Part shown: positions 36,199-42,535 of the stretch, one piece after another
Position numbering within the stretch: position 1 is the first letter of the stretch
How the letters are laid out: every line of letters starts with the position of its first letter
NCBI RefSeq assembly: GCF_001467625.1
Contig: NZ_LNYB01000081.1
Span: 1 to 64,000 of the forward strand
DNA: 64,000 nucleotides
From: Legionella feeleii
GTDB taxonomy: Bacteria; Pseudomonadota; Gammaproteobacteria; Legionellales; Legionellaceae
Direction: 5' to 3'
Made by a program: the position numbers and the translations under genes
The notes under the pieces: generated by a model
Seen by the model: the letters and a program-made list of their open reading frames with translations, nothing else
What the model was told of the DNA's origin: nothing
Databases searched by the model: none

Positions 36199-36274
36199 TC
36201 CCCGGTAGCTCAGTCGGTAGAGCGGATGACTGTTAATCATTAGGTCGGCGGTTCGAGCCCGTCCCGGGGAGCCA
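36199..36274 (+). tRNA. tRNA-Asn (GTT)
   Basis: A complete 76-nt cloverleaf: acceptor TCCCCGG/CCGGGGA, D arm GCTCAGTCGGTAGAGC, anticodon loop CTGTTAA with anticodon GTT, T arm with GGTTCGAGCCC, discriminator G and encoded CCA. Its 3' end borders an AT-rich accessory island, as tRNA genes often do. I found no repeat of the 3' end downstream that would mark an attR site. Confidence 0.97.
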
Positions 36275-36277
36275 ATA

Positions 36278-36304
36278 GAATCAAGAAATTATGATGTTTG
36301 ATTC
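36278..36304 (+). terminator. possible terminator of tRNA-Asn
   Basis: GAATCAA pairs with TTGATTC across a 13-nt loop right after the CCA end, followed by an AT-rich stretch with TTTT. The stem is weak in GC, so the call is tentative. Confidence 0.35.
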
Positions 36305-36390
36305 AAAGCTTTTAATTTTCATGTAGAAGCAATGTAGAATTTTGGAAGCCTCATCATAGCCAACACGGATTATTTTTAAAGGAGTAAGAG

Positions 36391-36477
36391 ATGAAATTTA
36401 TCAATGTTGAAATTAACGAAACCCTAATGACTGAATTACTAAGCATGTGCTTTGAAATTCATTGTACAGTTGGTTAA
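36391..36477 (+). CDS. 28-residue peptide, candidate natural-product precursor or leader peptide
   Basis: The short ORF reads MKFINVEINETLMTELL at its start and SMCFEIHCTVG at its end. AAAGGAG lies six bases before the ATG, one of the best ribosome-binding sites in the window. The N-terminal part is acidic and amphipathic, like a short RiPP leader. The C-terminal part contains two Cys and one His. A hairpin follows 15 bases after the stop, then an exporter and putative oxidative enzymes. It could instead be a regulatory leader peptide, although it is not enriched in one amino acid. No homologue is known to me. Confidence 0.5.
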   Translation: MKFINVEINETLMTELLSMCFEIHCTVG

Positions 36478-36491
36478 TTAATTCATTTCAA

Positions 36492-36525
36492 TATTGTCGA
36501 TCAGAGAAAATTCTTTTCGACAATA
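36492..36525 (+). terminator. attenuator-like hairpin after the peptide ORF
   Basis: TATTGTCGA pairs exactly with TCGACAATA across a 16-nt loop. A T-rich stretch follows (CTCATTTTATATCTTT). Placed between a small ORF and the exporter gene, it could end most transcripts after the peptide, as in many peptide clusters, or be the switch of an attenuator. Confidence 0.5.
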
Positions 36526-36552
36526 CTCATTTTATATCTTTATGTGCTTAAG

Positions 36553-37455
36553 ATGCCTCTCAAATCAATCGTATCTATTTTATTTTCAATCTTTTTTCTT
36601 AGTCTAATCAGTCTATTTGTTAAGGTCACCTCAACAACTCACGTTTTCTTGGAAATATTCTTTTTTAAGTGTTTTTTTGGGTTACTACCTTTTTTGATTA
36701 TTTTGCCTTTCAAGCCAAAGATACTCTACACTAAGATAATTAAAGGCCATTTGATTCGAGCCTTAATGGTTTTTGCGAGTACGGGACTTTTATTTTTATC
36801 GATAACCCTTTTACCCATTACTGTTGTTTGCTCCATTTCTTATACCTCCCCCATTCTAACTATGTTACTAGGGGTGCTTTTATTAAAAGAAAAAATTCCC
36901 AAGTCTCATCTTGTGGCTATTGGGATTTGTTTCATAGGTATTTTAATTATTATCAACCCGCTTACCAATCAGTTTAACTATTTTGTAATAGTGCCTGTAT
37001 TACAGGTCTTGCTAGTAGCACTGAACAATGTGTTGCTAAAAAGGTTTGCTGTTACTGATAGCGAATTAACGATTATATTTTATAGCGCCTTATTTAACTT
37101 CTTTTTTGCTTTGCTGTTACCTATAAAATTTGTAATCCCAAACAATCTCAATTTATTGCTCTTTATGGCTATAGGAATATTATCTTCTGCTGTCATTCTT
37201 TTAAGAACTCGAGCTTATAAAAACACGGACCTTTCAAAACTCGCACTGTTTGAGTATACATCGATTGCATGGGCACTCCTTTATGACTATTTACTTGATT
37301 CAAAAAACTTAACTGCATCAACTATTGTAGGGGTGGGCATGATCGTGGCTAGCTGCTTTTATATTGCCTTCCTAAAACAAAGAAAAATAATTACAATTCA
37401 GCCAAATAATAAATTGTCGTTTAAGGAAAATACAAATGTTACAGAACAAATTTAA
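36553..37455 (+). CDS. EamA/DMT family transporter
   Basis: A drug/metabolite transporter of about 300 aa with ten predicted membrane helices, in two EamA halves. The first half has the family pattern SYTSPILTMLLGVLLLKEKIP near residues 96-118 and the second ends EYTSIAWALLYDYLLDS. Members export amino acids, metabolites or drugs from the cytoplasm. No strong ribosome-binding site is seen for the ATG at 36553 (GTG at 36544 is an alternative). The stop overlaps the next start by 20 bases. Context suggests that it exports the cluster product. Confidence 0.88.
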   Translation: MPLKSIVSILFSIFFLSLISLFVKVTSTTHVFLEIFFFKCFFGLLPFLIILPFKPKILYTKIIKGHLIRALMVFASTGLLFLSITLLPITVVCSISYTSPILTMLLGVLLLKEKIPKSHLVAIGICFIGILIIINPLTNQFNYFVIVPVLQVLLVALNNVLLKRFAVTDSELTIIFYSALFNFFFALLLPIKFVIPNNLNLLLFMAIGILSSAVILLRTRAYKNTDLSKLALFEYTSIAWALLYDYLLDSKNLTASTIVGVGMIVASCFYIAFLKQRKIITIQPNNKLSFKENTNVTEQI

Positions 37456-37927
37456 AACGGATGCGCTTTTCGATTTATTGCCTCATAAGATGGAAGAATA
37501 TTTTTACAGAAAATTAGTTGGTGAATCGCAGGAAGAAATAAGGGTTAAGTTAATTGAGTTTCTAAAATTCTGCTTATTATACCCTCAGGCAAAGTGTAAT
37601 ATTCCTTTTAATGACGAAATCGATGAAATTTGGCATTTGTGGATTCTTCAAACAAGACAGTATCAAGAGCTAATGGACAAACTTCCGACTAAAACCTTTA
37701 TACACCATACATCAAACGAATATACCACTGATGAAGAAATATTTGACCAAAAAAAAGAAGTAAACATGCAAGTGTCCTTTCTAGTTTCTTATGTCTACAA
37801 TTTCGGTGAGTTTACTGAAGAGACTGTTCATTTTTGGCCTATGGCAAATAAACTATATTATAAACACGATAATGATATGAATAAATTGAACCTGTTTCTG
37901 CGTGAACTTGCAGTCAATTACGCTTAG
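37436..37927 (+). CDS. GRDP-like (glycine-rich domain-containing) protein, 163 aa
   Basis: The segment DEIDEIWHLWILQTRQYQEL (Trp66, His67), followed by FIHHTSNE, matches the WH-x-HIL-x-T-x-x-Y pattern of the GRDP-like family (PF07173 type) as I recall it, here without the glycine-rich tail. The family's biochemical role is poorly known. It is helical and cytoplasmic. AAGGA lies nine bases before the ATG, which is inside the EamA gene. Only eight bases separate it from the oxygenase gene, so it is part of the same pathway, perhaps as an enzyme with metal-binding His residues or as a carrier. This function is inference. Confidence 0.7.
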   Translation: MLQNKFKTDALFDLLPHKMEEYFYRKLVGESQEEIRVKLIEFLKFCLLYPQAKCNIPFNDEIDEIWHLWILQTRQYQELMDKLPTKTFIHHTSNEYTTDEEIFDQKKEVNMQVSFLVSYVYNFGEFTEETVHFWPMANKLYYKHDNDMNKLNLFLRELAVNYA

Positions 37928-37935
37928 GGATCAGC

Positions 37936-38730
37936 ATGTTTGAGATGCAAGCTATTATTCCAGAAAATTGGGACTTACTCGATAAACCAATTAACGAAAC
38001 TAGTAGTTATAATAGCTGCCACTTTACAGAAGAGGAGTTAATCTCTAAGCCGGAGCCTGTGTTCGACAAATTAAACCAGCATGGTTTTTCTATAGTATCT
38101 TTAAAAACAGCAAAAACTTTAGAAGAAGCGACTTTATTACTCGATACATTGTTTGCAAATCGAATGTTACAATCGAGAATGATTGATAATTTTCATACCA
38201 TTATCACACCTGTTGCAGATTCAAAAAGAATTTTACATTCAGATAAAGCACAAACACTGCATGTAGATTGTGGTGATAATAATGTACAACCAGAAATAGT
38301 AATATTATATTGCATTGAAGCTGCAAAAAGTGGGGGAGAAAATCTCATAGTCCCTGTAAGTGCTATCCTTGCCTACTTGAATGCGTTAAATTTATCAGCC
38401 AATCAATTAGAAGCTCTTTATGATAAAAAAGCTATAACATATGAAAGAGGTGCCTCAACTCTCACTAGCTCTATAATGCACAAAGATAAAAATGGTACCT
38501 CTTGTATCAGCATCATGTATGCAGACCGCATTCGCTGTAAAACCAGCCTTCATGAAGCGCTTTTTAAAACAATTTTAGAGTTTGCTCATAGAGAAGAAAA
38601 TCAAATAAAGATCAAATTAAATGATGGAGACATTTTAATCATTAAGAATCATCAGGTACTTCATGGAAGAAGCAGATTCGAAGGCCAAAGAAAAATGGTA
38701 CGAATTTGGTACAAAGGAAGTTGTAAATAA
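37936..38730 (+). CDS. TauD/TfdA-like Fe(II)/2-oxoglutarate-dependent oxygenase
   Basis: A 264-aa member of the TauD/TfdA/CAS-like superfamily. The Fe ligands can be placed: His109 and Asp111 in LHVDCGD and the distal His243 in QVLHGRSRF. Arg256 in MVRIWY is the likely 2-oxoglutarate salt-bridge residue. These enzymes hydroxylate, desaturate or halogenate amino-acid-like substrates, free or on carriers. The gene has AGGGATC before the ATG, and its stop overlaps the next ATG (TAATG). All iron ligands are intact, so it should be active. Confidence 0.82.
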   Translation: MFEMQAIIPENWDLLDKPINETSSYNSCHFTEEELISKPEPVFDKLNQHGFSIVSLKTAKTLEEATLLLDTLFANRMLQSRMIDNFHTIITPVADSKRILHSDKAQTLHVDCGDNNVQPEIVILYCIEAAKSGGENLIVPVSAILAYLNALNLSANQLEALYDKKAITYERGASTLTSSIMHKDKNGTSCISIMYADRIRCKTSLHEALFKTILEFAHREENQIKIKLNDGDILIIKNHQVLHGRSRFEGQRKMVRIWYKGSCK

Positions 38731-39635
38731 TGCAACTCAGTAAAATTGGTTTTGGTAGTTTATCAATTAGTGGCCTTTGGGATGAGGTTAGCGAAAGCCA
38801 AGCTATCAACATTATCAACCATGCACTTGATAAAGGAATTAATTGGATTGATACCTCTCCTCTGTATGGTAACGGTCGTGCTGAAAAAATAATAGCGGAA
38901 GTCGCGAAAAATAGACGAGATGATTTTTTTATTGCAAATAAGTGTGGCCGAATAACTGCTGATAATGGACAAATAAAAACAGACATGAGCCCATCTACCT
39001 TGAAAAAAGAATTAGCCGATAGCTTAAACAAACTCAAAACTGCTAATATTGATTTATATCAGTGCCATGTAATTGATGCAAATATTCCTATTGAAGAGAC
39101 ATGGCAGGGCATGTCCGCACTTGTTAAAGAAGGGTTAGTTAAATATATTGGGGTATGTAACTATAATCTTTCTTCATTAAAAATAATCCAAAAAATTCAC
39201 CCGGTGTACTCAATTCAACTTCCTTTTAATATGGCTACGCATAAAACTGAGCCCGATTTAATAAGGTACTGCATTGAAAATAACATAAAAATTATCTCAT
39301 ATAGCCCCCTGCAATCAGGTTTATTATCAGGAGAATTTGACTTAAGCAAACTCAAAAAAAATGATAAGCGCCTTGCAAGAAAAGAGCTTTTCTCGGCTCA
39401 CAGCATAGAAAAACATCTTTATTTAGTAAATAAAATCAAACCCATTGCTTTAGAATTGAATATTCCATTCTCAACTCTCGCTATTAGCTGGGTTCTGCAA
39501 AATAAATTTATAAGCAATGTAATACTGGGTATGACGTCAATTCAACAATTAGATCAAAATATTCAAGCCTTAGCGATAAACTTTAAGCCCCCTGATCTCA
39601 AGCTAATATCACGATATATGGCAAGAATTTTTTAG
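38730..39635 (+). CDS. aldo/keto reductase, last gene of the putative pathway
   Basis: A 301-aa AKR close to the YdhF/general stress protein 69 type. The catalytic residues are in place: Asp and Tyr in WIDTSPLYGNGRAE (about residues 44-57), Lys in FFIANKCGR, and His in YQCHVID. The NADPH-binding end is SNVILGMTSIQQL. It overlaps the oxygenase gene (TAATG) and has AAAGGAAG upstream. In context it may reduce a carbonyl made by the oxygenase. It differs clearly from the AKR at 5710-6567. Confidence 0.87.
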   Translation: MQLSKIGFGSLSISGLWDEVSESQAINIINHALDKGINWIDTSPLYGNGRAEKIIAEVAKNRRDDFFIANKCGRITADNGQIKTDMSPSTLKKELADSLNKLKTANIDLYQCHVIDANIPIEETWQGMSALVKEGLVKYIGVCNYNLSSLKIIQKIHPVYSIQLPFNMATHKTEPDLIRYCIENNIKIISYSPLQSGLLSGEFDLSKLKKNDKRLARKELFSAHSIEKHLYLVNKIKPIALELNIPFSTLAISWVLQNKFISNVILGMTSIQQLDQNIQALAINFKPPDLKLISRYMARIF

Positions 39636-39660
39636 GACTGAGAAATATTTATAGGTAAAT

Positions 39661-39692
39661 AGTGTCGAATTGGTAAATGAAGACTCGACAAT
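39661..39692. repeat. hairpin resembling that at 36492-36525
   Basis: AGTGTCGA and TCGACAAT are separated by 16 nt, the same spacing and nearly the same arms as the hairpin upstream of the EamA gene. It lies 25 bases after the AKR stop, so it may end the operon. Confidence 0.45.
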
Positions 39693-39726
39693 GCCCCCGC
39701 AGTGATAAAAGGAGGCAAACCATATC

Positions 39727-39969
39727 CTATCTTATTGATTGTAAAAGTTTAAGCATCTCTAAATTTTGTTCTATTTTTTTATAATCTCCTTCAAAATTGA
39801 TGGTCTTTGGATTAAAAGAAACCAATATTTTTTGAAATTCATCTTCCTTGGCAGGCAGGTCAAGACTTACTTCAGTCCAAGTTGCGGGAAAGAGCTTCTT
39901 TACAATTGTGAATGTGTTCTGTTGGGGAACTGGTTTTTTCTTGGCATTGGCAACCCAGAATGCGCTCAT
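39727..39969 (-). CDS. small hypothetical protein, 80 aa
   Basis: The family is not recognised. The frame has an ATG but only a poor ribosome-binding site. The product is mixed charge with an amphipathic C-terminal helix (KKIEQNLEMLKLLQSI). It lies in debris between the island and the next gene and could be a remnant. Confidence 0.4.
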   Translation of the reverse strand: MSAFWVANAKKKPVPQQNTFTIVKKLFPATWTEVSLDLPAKEDEFQKILVSFNPKTINFEGDYKKIEQNLEMLKLLQSIR

Positions 39970-40000
39970 TTCAAAATCATAAATAACAAATGAATATGGA

Positions 40001-40327
40001 TTACCTAATAAAAGTGGGTATATCTATATCCATCATTGCCTTTAAAGCCATGGGGAAATTACCAAGATTCGTTTTTAAAACGCTTAAGCCTTTTGAGTCT
40101 TTTTGAAATTCGACTAGGTTATTTACCATTTTCAGTTCACCTAGACTATATAGCACATCTGAAATTATCTTATCATGTGCTTCCAACATACGTTTCATGT
40201 CTGATGTTTTTTTATCTATTTTGCTGATTTTATCATCTAATTTGGTTTGATTTGAAAAATGTTTGCTTACTTGGTCACATCCTGTGAGACCAATCAATAC
40301 AACCAGTAGTAAGAGTTTAAACTGCAT
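40001..40327 (-). CDS. small lipoprotein with coiled coil
   Basis: The 108-aa product starts with a lipoprotein signal (LLLVVLIGLTGC, lipobox LTGC, Cys about residue 17), followed by a helical, charged segment (LDDKISKIDKKTSDMKRML) that should form a coiled coil. I chose the ATG with GAGG eight bases upstream. No family is recognised. Small coiled-coil lipoproteins of this type occur near conjugation genes, and mobile-element remnants follow here, but this is only suggestive. Confidence 0.6.
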   Translation of the reverse strand: MQFKLLLLVVLIGLTGCDQVSKHFSNQTKLDDKISKIDKKTSDMKRMLEAHDKIISDVLYSLGELKMVNNLVEFQKDSKGLSVLKTNLGNFPMALKAMMDIDIPTFIR

Positions 40328-40449
40328 ATTTACAACCTCATTGGTATGGCGTATTAACAATTACTAAATTGACAGCAATTAATAAACTGAAAGAACGCCA
40401 TAATCTATACTTTTAACTCATATTTCGCATATAGAAACGGGAAAAGGGT

Positions 40450-40659
40450 CTACCACGAACGACCATTATTTACGTCGTTATTGTGATGACCTCCTGATGA
40501 GGCGAATGCGCTATTAGCCATTTGCTGTTGCTGCAATCGTTGTTGCTCTTGCTTATATGCTTGTTGCTGTCGTATTTGTTCTTGTTGTAAACGAGCTAAT
40601 TCCCCCTTTAAATGAACTCGAAAATCCAGTGTAAATTTAAATTGATTCTTTATTAATTT
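40450..40659 (-). pseudogene. Gln-rich C-terminal fragment without a start codon
   Basis: A 69-codon open frame with no ATG, GTG or TTG at its head reads LKGELARLQQEQIRQQQ and on through a Gln-rich helix to GRSW and a stop. A Gln-rich coil with a short polar end resembles the C-termini of conjugative transfer proteins. It looks like the surviving end of a longer gene lost from this site. Confidence 0.45.
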
Positions 40660-40837
40660 TTATGATCTGATTAAGCTGCTTTTTCCACTCTGTCATTTCC
40701 CGTGCCAAAGTCCTTATTTCAGCAGAGCGAGCACCATGCTTATAGGCATTCATCCGACTGATAGCTTTACCCTCGGAAGTTTTTACCCCTGCTGATTGCC
40801 AAGGTTTCCATCTAGCCCCATTTCTTTTACGCGCCAG
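40637..40837 (-). pseudogene. remnant of a small mobile-element-associated protein
   Basis: The frame encodes 66 residues with the motif VKTSEGKAISRMNAYKHGAR. KHG-motif small proteins of this form are widespread beside plasmid, phage and integrative-element genes. There is no standard start codon; a CTG at 40837 follows a stop directly. I read it as a decayed gene, or one with a mutated start. It overlaps the Gln-rich fragment in another frame, so both are probably relics of one element. Confidence 0.5.
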
Positions 40838-40864
40838 TTAGGCAAAGCCTCTAACCCCTTCAGC

Positions 40865-40885
40865 TATACTTGTTTGTACAAACAA
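40865..40885. promoter_or_regulatory. 16-bp palindrome next to a -10-like box
   Basis: TTGTTTGTACAAACAA (40870-40885) is a perfect palindrome. TATACT at 40865-40870 touches it on the upstream side, and the ATG of the next gene is 22 bases downstream. The geometry fits an operator for a dimeric regulator covering the transcription start. Confidence 0.45.
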
Positions 40886-40907
40886 TTACGTCAATAGATA
40901 GATTGAT

Positions 40908-42296
40908 ATGAAACTTAAAATCGTATTTTGCGAACCACCTGTGAAACACATTCAAGCTGCTGACGATGAAAAATTAATTGTCATTCAAAGTCCCTATAAG
41001 ATTATTCAGGCTGAATTAGGTGATACAAGAGAGTATGAAAAATTAGATGGCTCCAAAATGCCTGAAGATTTTACCTATGAACAATATTGCCATGAGATGA
41101 ATACCCTCATCCATACTGCTATCAGTGAAAGCAGTCTATCGGATCATAGTTACGATCAAATCACTATTGAGGGATTCAATCAACCTCCCAATTTTAAAAC
41201 AATCTGTTCTGAAATAGAAAAAAGACGGATACCCTGTGCTTCAAGCAGTAAAATTTTATTTGAAAACTGTTCTTTTGGGGGGAAACAATATACTGACTCA
41301 GTGAGTAGACTAGTTGGCTCCCTGCAAAATCACCATTTTGAACATCACCATGAACCATTAACTTTCGAAATAATTCTGACTGATCAACGTAAAACTCACC
41401 TATCCAAACATGATGAAGCGCGTCTTGCACTGTTGAAAGATGTGGTGGTATACCGAGGCAATGAGAATATTTCCCTGAAAACATTTAGGGATGATTCGCT
41501 AATTGGAGTGAAGAAGACTCCCTTAATAACAAGGTTAGAGGCGCCTACTTTTTTTTACCGCAACCCTATAAAAACGATGAATGGGCAAACCTCCGCTGAA
41601 ATGGTATTAAAAAACTTCTTCAGCCAGGAGGCACAGCAACAAAGTGATTTTACCTGTGGTCCAGCCACTGTAAAAATGGTTGCAGGTTATTTTGATTCCA
41701 TGCAAAGTCGAGGTTTTTATGGCGCTCCAGTAACCAATCAAGACGTATGGCATACAATCGCTCAAACCCCTGAAATGCTTCTTGCAGAGCAAGTAAATAC
41801 CTCAGAAGCAGAGGGCTCTGGTATTCCTGAAATCCGCAATGGATTGATAGAAATGGGCATTACTGTCTTTGATGATAATGGTTTGAGTGATAAAACCCAT
41901 GATGAAGAGACCTTAAGTGCCCATAAAGAATTGTTATGGAATAAAATCCATCAAATTGTGAAAATGGGTATCCCTGTCATTTTAAATATGCAAGATAGGG
42001 GTGGTTGTGGTCATTTTGAAGTAGTTATTGGTATTGAGGAGAGCCCGGAGGGAGAACACATCATTCTAGCCGAACCAGGAACGGCCTTGGTTGGTAATCT
42101 TGAGTTTGAGCATATTCCAAAAGATAAATTTATTGACCGATGGAAAAATATGAGTGGTGAATTTCACGGCCGATTTATGATTTTATCCCCTAATGAAGCC
42201 TCCAGCCATAAAATAGATACCATTCTCGCAGATGTACCTCACTATAAAAATGGGGAAGAAATGAACAGAAGAGCAGAGTCCACACCTGGCATCTGA
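40908..42296 (+). CDS. C39-like papain-fold protein, candidate effector, 462 aa
   Basis: Residues 1-200 match no family I know. Residues 235-430 look like a C39-type cysteine peptidase: DFTCGPATVKMVAGYF with the nucleophile Cys250, then GGCGHFEVVIGI with His369, and AEPGTA, where Glu389 takes the position usually held by Asp or Asn. Bacterial relatives cleave peptides; as an orphan with a large N-terminal domain and no signal peptide, it is a fair Dot/Icm substrate candidate. Expression may be governed by the palindrome just upstream. Activity is inferred. Confidence 0.68.
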   Translation: MKLKIVFCEPPVKHIQAADDEKLIVIQSPYKIIQAELGDTREYEKLDGSKMPEDFTYEQYCHEMNTLIHTAISESSLSDHSYDQITIEGFNQPPNFKTICSEIEKRRIPCASSSKILFENCSFGGKQYTDSVSRLVGSLQNHHFEHHHEPLTFEIILTDQRKTHLSKHDEARLALLKDVVVYRGNENISLKTFRDDSLIGVKKTPLITRLEAPTFFYRNPIKTMNGQTSAEMVLKNFFSQEAQQQSDFTCGPATVKMVAGYFDSMQSRGFYGAPVTNQDVWHTIAQTPEMLLAEQVNTSEAEGSGIPEIRNGLIEMGITVFDDNGLSDKTHDEETLSAHKELLWNKIHQIVKMGIPVILNMQDRGGCGHFEVVIGIEESPEGEHIILAEPGTALVGNLEFEHIPKDKFIDRWKNMSGEFHGRFMILSPNEASSHKIDTILADVPHYKNGEEMNRRAESTPGI

Positions 42297-42535
42297 GCTT
42301 ATGCAGGATAACAACTGAGGACTTTAGGTAGTTTAAAAAATAGCGCTGTCCTTGAGAACGAAAACCTTGGTTTCGCTACGCTTTATCAAGGCTACCAGCA
42401 TCATGTTTTCTATCGTCTACTTGGCAACGATCAGGACACTATTGTTTTTCCTAAAACGTACTCTTATTATTTGCACATAAAGAACATTCATAAGAGCATT
42501 CTTAGGATGTTAATGGTTTGAATCAGGGAGGAAGT

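What the first reader, a model, noticed from the sequence alone, without database searches (positions are those of the whole stretch)
36391..39635. Candidate new peptide-derived natural-product cluster beside tRNA-Asn
A 28-codon ORF with a very strong ribosome-binding site is followed by a hairpin and four coupled genes: EamA exporter, GRDP-like protein, TauD-like oxygenase with intact Fe ligands (His109, Asp111, His243), and AKR. The last four overlap or are 8 bases apart. The peptide ends in a Cys/His-rich segment (CFEIHC). The set precursor + exporter + oxygenase + reductase is what a minimal RiPP cluster would look like, but no known RiPP class uses this enzyme set that I can recall. The alternative is a small-molecule pathway with a leader peptide.
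Basis: partly seen in the sequence, partly recalled or inferred. Interest (0 to 1): 0.8.

Follow-up and report, generated by a model that had tools for sequence, protein, structure and literature searches.

The report
Possible new modified-peptide gene cluster
A five-gene cluster on a variable stretch of a bacterial chromosome probably makes a small product from a 28-residue peptide with an unusual set of enzymes, which would be a new variant of ribosomal peptide natural products if the peptide is shown to be made and modified.

Summary
The anatomy is as reported: a 28-codon ORF with a strong ribosome-binding site, a hairpin, then EamA, GRDP-like, TauD-like and AKR genes packed as one operon, in an AT-rich, species-specific island beside tRNA-Asn. 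The best evidence is indirect. The four best-scoring TauD relatives in the family (26-30% identical) lie in MNIO-type RiPP clusters of other genomes. Each begins with a 25-29-residue peptide followed by a hairpin. The window peptide aligns with those four at M1, E7, I8, E10, C20 and C25, the CxxxxC; 123 of 20,000 shuffles score as high. A profile-HMM test of the same idea failed. No MNIO, protease or peptide ABC exporter was found among the operon proteins. Best reading: a RiPP or carrier-peptide pathway with a new enzyme set, whose small product leaves through EamA. Rival: a small-molecule or sugar pathway with an unrelated translated leader. Novelty: new variant of a known kind, confidence about 0.5.

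The parts
36199..36274 (+). tRNA-Asn (GTT), island boundary
   Evidence: ARAGORN and Rfam RF00005; its last ~50 bases recur downstream in 7 of 20 fetched genus loci, not in this window at up to 3 mismatches (25-base pattern)
36275..42515 (.). species-specific island that holds the operon
   Evidence: in the 19.5 kb fetched from the closest relative G121 (96% identical up to 36275) the match resumes only at 42516; GC 33.2% in the operon versus 42% for the window
36379..36384 (+). AAGGAG ribosome-binding site, 6 nt before the start
36391..36477 (+). 28-codon ORF, candidate precursor or carrier peptide
36448..36465 (+). CFEIHC, the CxxxxC segment aligned with CNSVGC/CNSVAC of the MNIO-cluster peptides
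36492..36525 (+). hairpin between the ORF and EamA; no terminator-like U run
36544..37455 (+). EamA-family transporter (GTG 36544 or ATG 36553)
   Evidence: PF00892 E 6.2e-22; best-scoring relative in 134 family genomes 23% identical
37436..37927 (+). GRDP-like all-helical protein, possible metal site D63/H67/H90/H91 (inference)
37936..38730 (+). TauD-like Fe(II)/2-oxoglutarate oxygenase, ligands H109 D111 H243
   Evidence: PF02668 E 1.2e-21, alignment A3
38730..39635 (+). aldo/keto reductase with tetrad D41 Y46 K71 H113 (tetrad motif recalled)
   Evidence: PF00248 E 1.8e-70, positions

Best explanation
The operon is a ribosomal-peptide pathway. The 28-residue peptide is translated in excess from its strong site, and a hairpin separates it from the exporter and enzyme genes. 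The N-terminal part (about residues 1-19) serves as the recognition stretch and the C-terminal C-F-E-I-H-C-T-V-G is modified. The TauD-like oxygenase hydroxylates or oxidises a residue of that segment. The aldo/keto reductase acts on a resulting carbonyl. The GRDP-like protein, a helical protein with a conserved His/Asp set, is a partner or second metalloenzyme. Host proteases free a small product, which EamA exports. Shown: gene order, ribosome-binding site, hairpin, intact catalytic residues, and the best-scoring family TauDs lying in MNIO clusters with a similar peptide at the front. Inferred: translation, homology of the peptide, every chemical step, and export of a small product rather than a peptide.
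For: Of 143 family genomes, 12 besides the own one hold a TauD relative. The four best-scoring (G058, G120, G073, G122; 26-30%) lie in clusters whose G058 copy has MNIO (PF05114), GNAT, PhyH and ABC genes; MNIO, GNAT, PhyH and X1 occur in all four. Each starts with a 25-29-aa Cys peptide and a hairpin of z -3.0 to -4.7, as the window does. The aligned peptides share M1 E7 I8 E10 C20 C25 (the L033 peptide was given without its four extra N-terminal residues). Ungapped BLOSUM score: 36 of 2000 shuffles reach it, and the window ORF ranks first of 598 small ORFs, though only just (28.75; next 28.5 and 28.0). Start-anchored: 123 of 20,000 shuffles; of 15,208 ORFs of 20-40 aa in 829,881 bases, 8 reach it: the 4 peptides (by construction), the window ORF and 3 without a ribosome-binding site. 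In G187 a GRDP-like gene with a Cys/His tail directly precedes a TauD gene. The three TauDs labelled sugar-cluster split from the other twelve at 100/100.
Against: A profile HMM of the four peptides does not find the window peptide (score -1.3; 3276 of 4376 scored shuffles do as well). The four peptides are near-identical, so they count as little more than one comparison. The window TauD is a long branch, left out of the 96/99 clade of the MNIO-cluster and G049 TauDs. No MNIO, protease, PqqD-like domain or peptide ABC exporter is among the Pfam or NCBIfam hits of the operon proteins. The one MNIO found in the own genome lies in what reads, by eye, as a bufferin-like operon on another contig. 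Apart from the window, G187 is the only same-strand GRDP-TauD neighbour pair seen in the searches of 369 class genomes (a few GRDP hits were not fetched). In G049 the two lie 1.3 kb apart on opposite strands.
Confidence: 0.5

Rival explanations
1. A small-molecule or sugar-modifying pathway: TauD and AKR act in sequence on an amino acid, sugar or lipid, and EamA exports it. The small ORF is a translated leader that affects expression, unrelated to the product.
For: In G030 (L037) a TauD is directly followed by a Pfam-confirmed AKR inside a cluster with sugar transferase, DegT aminotransferase and epimerase. EamA proteins mostly export amino acids and small metabolites (recalled). A Nostoc TauD relative lies beside a P450, panD and a very large SDR-annotated gene that I read as a polyketide synthase.
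Against: The sugar-cluster TauDs are separated from the window TauD at 100/100, and the G030 AKR was not hit by the window AKR at E 1e-3. None of the nine proteins scanned between 34914 and 42296 is a glycosyltransferase. The ORF has no run of three or more of one amino acid, and no terminator-like site was found (shuffles give 1.9 on average), so it does not look like an ordinary attenuator.
Confidence: 0.33
2. The small ORF is a chance or decayed ORF in an AT-rich integration scar, and the four genes are an unrelated imported operon.
For: In 20 genus loci the best match to the ORF is E 0.39. In 143 family genomes, beyond the four MNIO-cluster peptides and itself, only weak hits of E 0.03 or worse. 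The region is variable between species.
Against: Ribosome-binding site, spacing and hairpin are each rare by chance, and the start-anchored similarity to the RiPP peptides is reached by no other ORF of the window.
Confidence: 0.17

Closest known systems
MNIO (DUF692, PF05114) RiPP clusters, e.g. bufferins, methanobactins, pearlins (PMC12452194, passages and section 17 read)
   Same: Short Cys peptide at the front; the four best-scoring TauDs lie in such clusters; CxxxxC spacing
   Different: No MNIO or MNIO partner found in the window operon. The published 'CxxxxC' precursors carry signal peptides; this peptide is 28 aa. The words TauD, PhyH, GNAT and acetyltransferase do not occur in that paper's main text.
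Pearlins, amino-acid products built on a carrier peptide (PMC9303977, passages read)
   Same: Small carrier peptide plus tailoring enzymes plus a transporter; product is amino-acid sized
   Different: No PEARL ligase, DUF692 enzyme or protease found here; the window has Fe/2OG and AKR enzymes instead
HEXXH/alpha-ketoglutarate RiPP enzymes, pfl/pos clusters (PMC12636437, passages read)
   Same: 2-oxoglutarate-dependent iron chemistry on a ribosomal peptide; no protease found in the cluster
   Different: TauD family rather than HEXXH; no MNIO-nitroreductase; peptide differs
TauD-AKR pair in a polysaccharide-type cluster (G030, L037)
   Same: TauD directly followed by AKR
   Different: Different TauD clade and divergent AKR; sugar genes around it

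Membership tests
RiPP (ribosomally made, modified peptide) | genetically encoded precursor peptide | tested here: inconclusive
   ORF with strong site and similarity to MNIO-cluster peptides, but the HMM test failed and translation is not shown
RiPP (ribosomally made, modified peptide) | post-translational modification of that peptide | not testable with these tools
   needs mass spectrometry
RiPP (ribosomally made, modified peptide) | modifying enzymes encoded beside it | tested here: inconclusive
   TauD and AKR with intact residues are there; their substrate is unknown
MNIO-type RiPP cluster | MNIO enzyme (PF05114) in the cluster | tested here: not met
   no hit to L031's MNIO in the window; the one own-genome MNIO is on contig C82
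Pearlin | PEARL aminoacyl-tRNA ligase and releasing protease | tested here: not met
   neither among Pfam/NCBIfam hits of the operon proteins
TauD/TfdA Fe(II)/2OG oxygenases | HxD...H iron triad and distal Arg | tested here: met
   H109, D111, H243, R256 invariant in 10 sequences; PF02668 E 1.2e-21
GRDP-like (PF07173) | profile score over the curated cut-off | tested here: not met
   no hit at E 0.1 or in the own-genome search at E 1 (whose control genomes also rang nowhere)
GRDP-like (PF07173) | shared D..WH...Y...HH pattern | tested here: met
   32-sequence alignment; L029 relative passes the cut-off
GRDP-like (PF07173) | fold | tested here: inconclusive
   model pLDDT 80.5; best two viral matches E 0.045 (ubiquitin-like domain protein) and E 0.095 (named GRDP-like, probability 0.99), none at E 0.001; no solved structure matches
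Aldo/keto reductase | PF00248 profile and Asp-Tyr-Lys-His tetrad | tested here: met
   E 1.8e-70; D41 Y46 K71 H113 (motif recalled)
Amino-acid leader-peptide attenuator | run of regulatory codons and a U-run terminator | tested here: not met
   no run of three or more in the 28 codons (by eye); 0 terminator-like sites in 36200-39800

The most novel reading that the evidence does not exclude
A new RiPP or carrier-peptide class: a 28-residue CxxxxC peptide, distantly related to MNIO-cluster precursors, is tailored without any MNIO by a TauD-family oxygenase, an aldo/keto reductase and a GRDP-like metalloprotein, and the small product is exported by an EamA transporter.
Probability: 0.38. Interest if true: 0.75.

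Novelty: new variant of a known kind. Interest (0 to 1): 0.55.

Why it matters
If true, it adds a ribosomal-peptide pathway built on TauD and AKR chemistry, gives a first functional context to the little-studied GRDP-like family, and suggests that MNIO-type precursors can pass to other enzyme sets on variable islands. It also gives a search handle (TauD plus short CxxxxC peptide plus hairpin) for clusters that enzyme-based mining may miss.

Tried and rejected
Orthologue hunts: TauD in genome contigs, 10 pattern stretches, none a relative. GRDP in genome contigs, 87 stretches, 1 weak Flavobacterium locus in which no ORF was hit by the window GRDP. TauD in plasmids, 1 record, Nostoc; GRDP in plasmids, none. 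TauD and the peptides in viral contigs, none confirmed. TauD in 369 class genomes, 19 besides the own, best E 2.8e-10; in 398 phylum genomes, 16 besides the own, best E 7.1e-10. AKR in 46 relatives, best-scoring hits 31-35%. X1 and X2 of the MNIO clusters in plasmids, none; their PhyH and MNIO match 45 and 353 plasmid records, as broad families do (not followed).

HMM comparison of the peptide with the four MNIO-cluster peptides failed and is reported as evidence against. The BLOSUM tests were made after that failure, so they are not a fresh, pre-planned test.

No attachment copy of the tRNA end is claimed in the window: the 25-base pattern recurs nowhere at up to 3 mismatches.

Fold search of the GRDP-like model against solved structures: none at E 0.001, best E 4.0. 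A single-sequence model was poor (pLDDT 46.9) and was dropped.

L218 (G544): the 267-aa gene after TauD looked like an AKR by eye but has no Pfam hit and does not align with the window AKR, so it is not counted. L038's neighbour was not scanned; its 'sugar' label rests on its likeness to L037.
Full report
What is there. The window carries, after a tRNA-Asn gene at 36199-36274, a 28-codon ORF at 36391-36477 with AAGGAG six bases upstream, a hairpin at 36492-36525, and four genes on the + strand: EamA transporter, GRDP-like protein, TauD-like oxygenase and aldo/keto reductase. The junctions are an overlap of 20 nt, a gap of 8 nt and one shared base, which fits one transcription unit.

Is the small ORF more than chance? 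Four ATG ORFs of 20-60 codons in the 64 kb have AAGGAG at 4-9 bases; the other three overlap ORFs of at least 100 aa. A Markov version of the 278-base gap yields such a + strand ORF at frequency 0.001 (2000 runs). The hairpin has z about -4 for the 66-base stretch and -2.56 for a 75-base one, against 5 of 400 random 66-mers at z -3 or lower. No terminator-like site was found by the consensus scan.

Where it lies. The closest relative, G121, is 96% identical up to the end of the tRNA; in the 19.5 kb fetched, its match to the window resumes only at 42516. Between these points it has different DNA, with a 50-base copy of the tRNA end. Such downstream copies appear in 7 of the 20 genus loci fetched. 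The operon is 33% GC against 42% for the window. None of the four proteins showed a close relative. Best-scoring hits: TauD 30% in 143 family genomes; EamA 23% in 134 (listed hits 20-27%); AKR 31-35% in 46 relatives; GRDP-like only E 5.6e-6 or worse, in 7 of 369 class genomes other than its own. I infer that the operon was imported; no counterpart was found in the genomes searched.

The clue. Of the family's TauD relatives, the four best-scoring (G058, G120, G073, G122) lie in one cluster type. In G058 its genes are GNAT, an unknown protein X1, MNIO (PF05114), PhyH, an unknown X2 with a sub-threshold match to a HExxH peptide hydroxylase (E 0.18), TauD, ABC transporter genes and others. MNIO, GNAT, PhyH and X1 occur in all four, X2 in two. 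MNIO enzymes act in RiPP pathways (PMC12452194; passages and section 17 read). Each of the four clusters begins with a peptide of 25-29 residues and then a hairpin of 8-13 pairs with z -3.0 to -4.7. That is the same order as in the window: peptide, hairpin, the rest.

The peptide comparison. The window peptide and the four others align with one internal gap near the start and share M1, E7, I8, E10, C20 and C25. Results for and against: a profile HMM of the four does not recognise it (score -1.3; 3276 of 4376 scored shuffles do as well). An ungapped BLOSUM score is reached by 36 of 2000 shuffles, and the peptide ranks first of 598 small ORFs of the window, but barely (28.75 against 28.5 and 28.0). 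Anchored at the start, 123 of 20,000 shuffles reach it. Of 15,208 ORFs of 20-40 aa in 829,881 bases (window and fetched loci over 4,500 bases), 8 reach it: the four peptides, which match by construction, the window peptide, and three without a ribosome-binding site. Of 264 with such a site, four reach it, three of them MNIO-cluster peptides. The similarity is suggestive, not proof: the BLOSUM tests came after the HMM failure, and the four peptides are near copies of one another.

The GRDP-like protein. It has no GRDP hit of its own in Pfam. Thirty-one relatives share D63, W66, H67, Y76, H90 and H91 with it; one of seven scanned passes the PF07173 cut-off. The model from that alignment is all-helical, pLDDT 80.5. 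It matches no solved structure. Its best viral matches are weak: E 0.045 to a ubiquitin-like domain protein and E 0.095 to a protein named GRDP-like. The conserved His/Asp set suggests a metal site (inference). In G187 a GRDP-like gene with a Cys/His-rich tail directly precedes a TauD gene; apart from the window it is the only same-strand neighbour pair seen in the searches of 369 class genomes (a few GRDP hits were not fetched).

The main rival. In G030 a TauD is directly followed by an AKR inside a sugar or surface-polysaccharide type cluster, so the pair alone does not mean a peptide substrate. Those TauDs form a separate clade at 100/100, and the G030 AKR is not recognised by the window AKR at E 1e-3. 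The window TauD sits on a long branch, left out of the 96/99 clade that holds the MNIO-cluster and G049 TauDs.

How it probably works (inference). The peptide is made in excess, its N-terminal part is the recognition stretch, TauD oxidises a residue of CFEIHCTVG, AKR acts on a carbonyl, the GRDP-like protein assists, and EamA exports a small product after trimming by host proteases. A carrier-peptide logic with a transporter is known from pearlins (PMC9303977, passages read). Features of known pathways that were not found here are an MNIO, a PEARL ligase, a protease and a peptide exporter.

Literature. Searches of the held library with RiPP, TauD, EamA, AKR, GRDP, MNIO, GNAT and Legionella terms listed no paper whose title or abstract start describes this enzyme set. 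Some lists were capped (15 of 35, 10 of 77), and subscription journals are mostly not held. The four-genome MNIO cluster did not appear in the passages of PMC12452194 that I read.

Verdict. On checking, several figures were mended (stem lengths, identities, capped lists, the narrow lead); none required a change of odds.

Noticed in passing
L031, L032, L033, L034 (G058, G120, G073, G122): An MNIO RiPP cluster not met in what I read: 25-29-aa peptide ending CNSV[GA]CP, GNAT, X1, MNIO, PhyH, TauD, ABC genes; mobile-element genes nearby in three (integrase in L034, ArdA, SSB and a transposase in L032, an rve integrase-core gene in L031).
   Followed up: partly
window 36226-36275 and genus loci L069, L072, L075, L077, L080, L083, L085: tRNA-Asn looks like an island site in the genus; the last ~50 bases of the tRNA recur about 6-12 kb downstream in 7 of 20 loci.
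   Followed up: partly
L231 (G000:C82:113500-119500): The own genome has what reads by eye as a bufferin-like operon: 89-aa Cys-rich peptide with a signal-like start, MNIO, 261-aa partner.
   Followed up: partly
L155:4391-5851: A GRDP-like domain fused to a TIGR04222 domain (E 8.1e-40); TIGR04222 proteins are reported among MNIO-associated putative precursors (PMC12452194, passage).
   Followed up: no
G000:C81:172164-172517: A second, divergent GRDP-like gene in the own genome.
   Followed up: no
window 40908-42296: 462-aa protein with weak Peptidase_C39_2 and C70 matches (E 0.0011 and 0.0098, below cut-offs), in the same island.
   Followed up: no
window 39727-40360, - strand: Two adjacent short ORFs, the upstream one lipoprotein-like by eye, possibly pieces of one gene.
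   Followed up: no
L037:6868-8558: TauD-AKR pair in a cluster with sugar transferase, DegT aminotransferase, epimerase and KAS III-like genes.
   Followed up: partly
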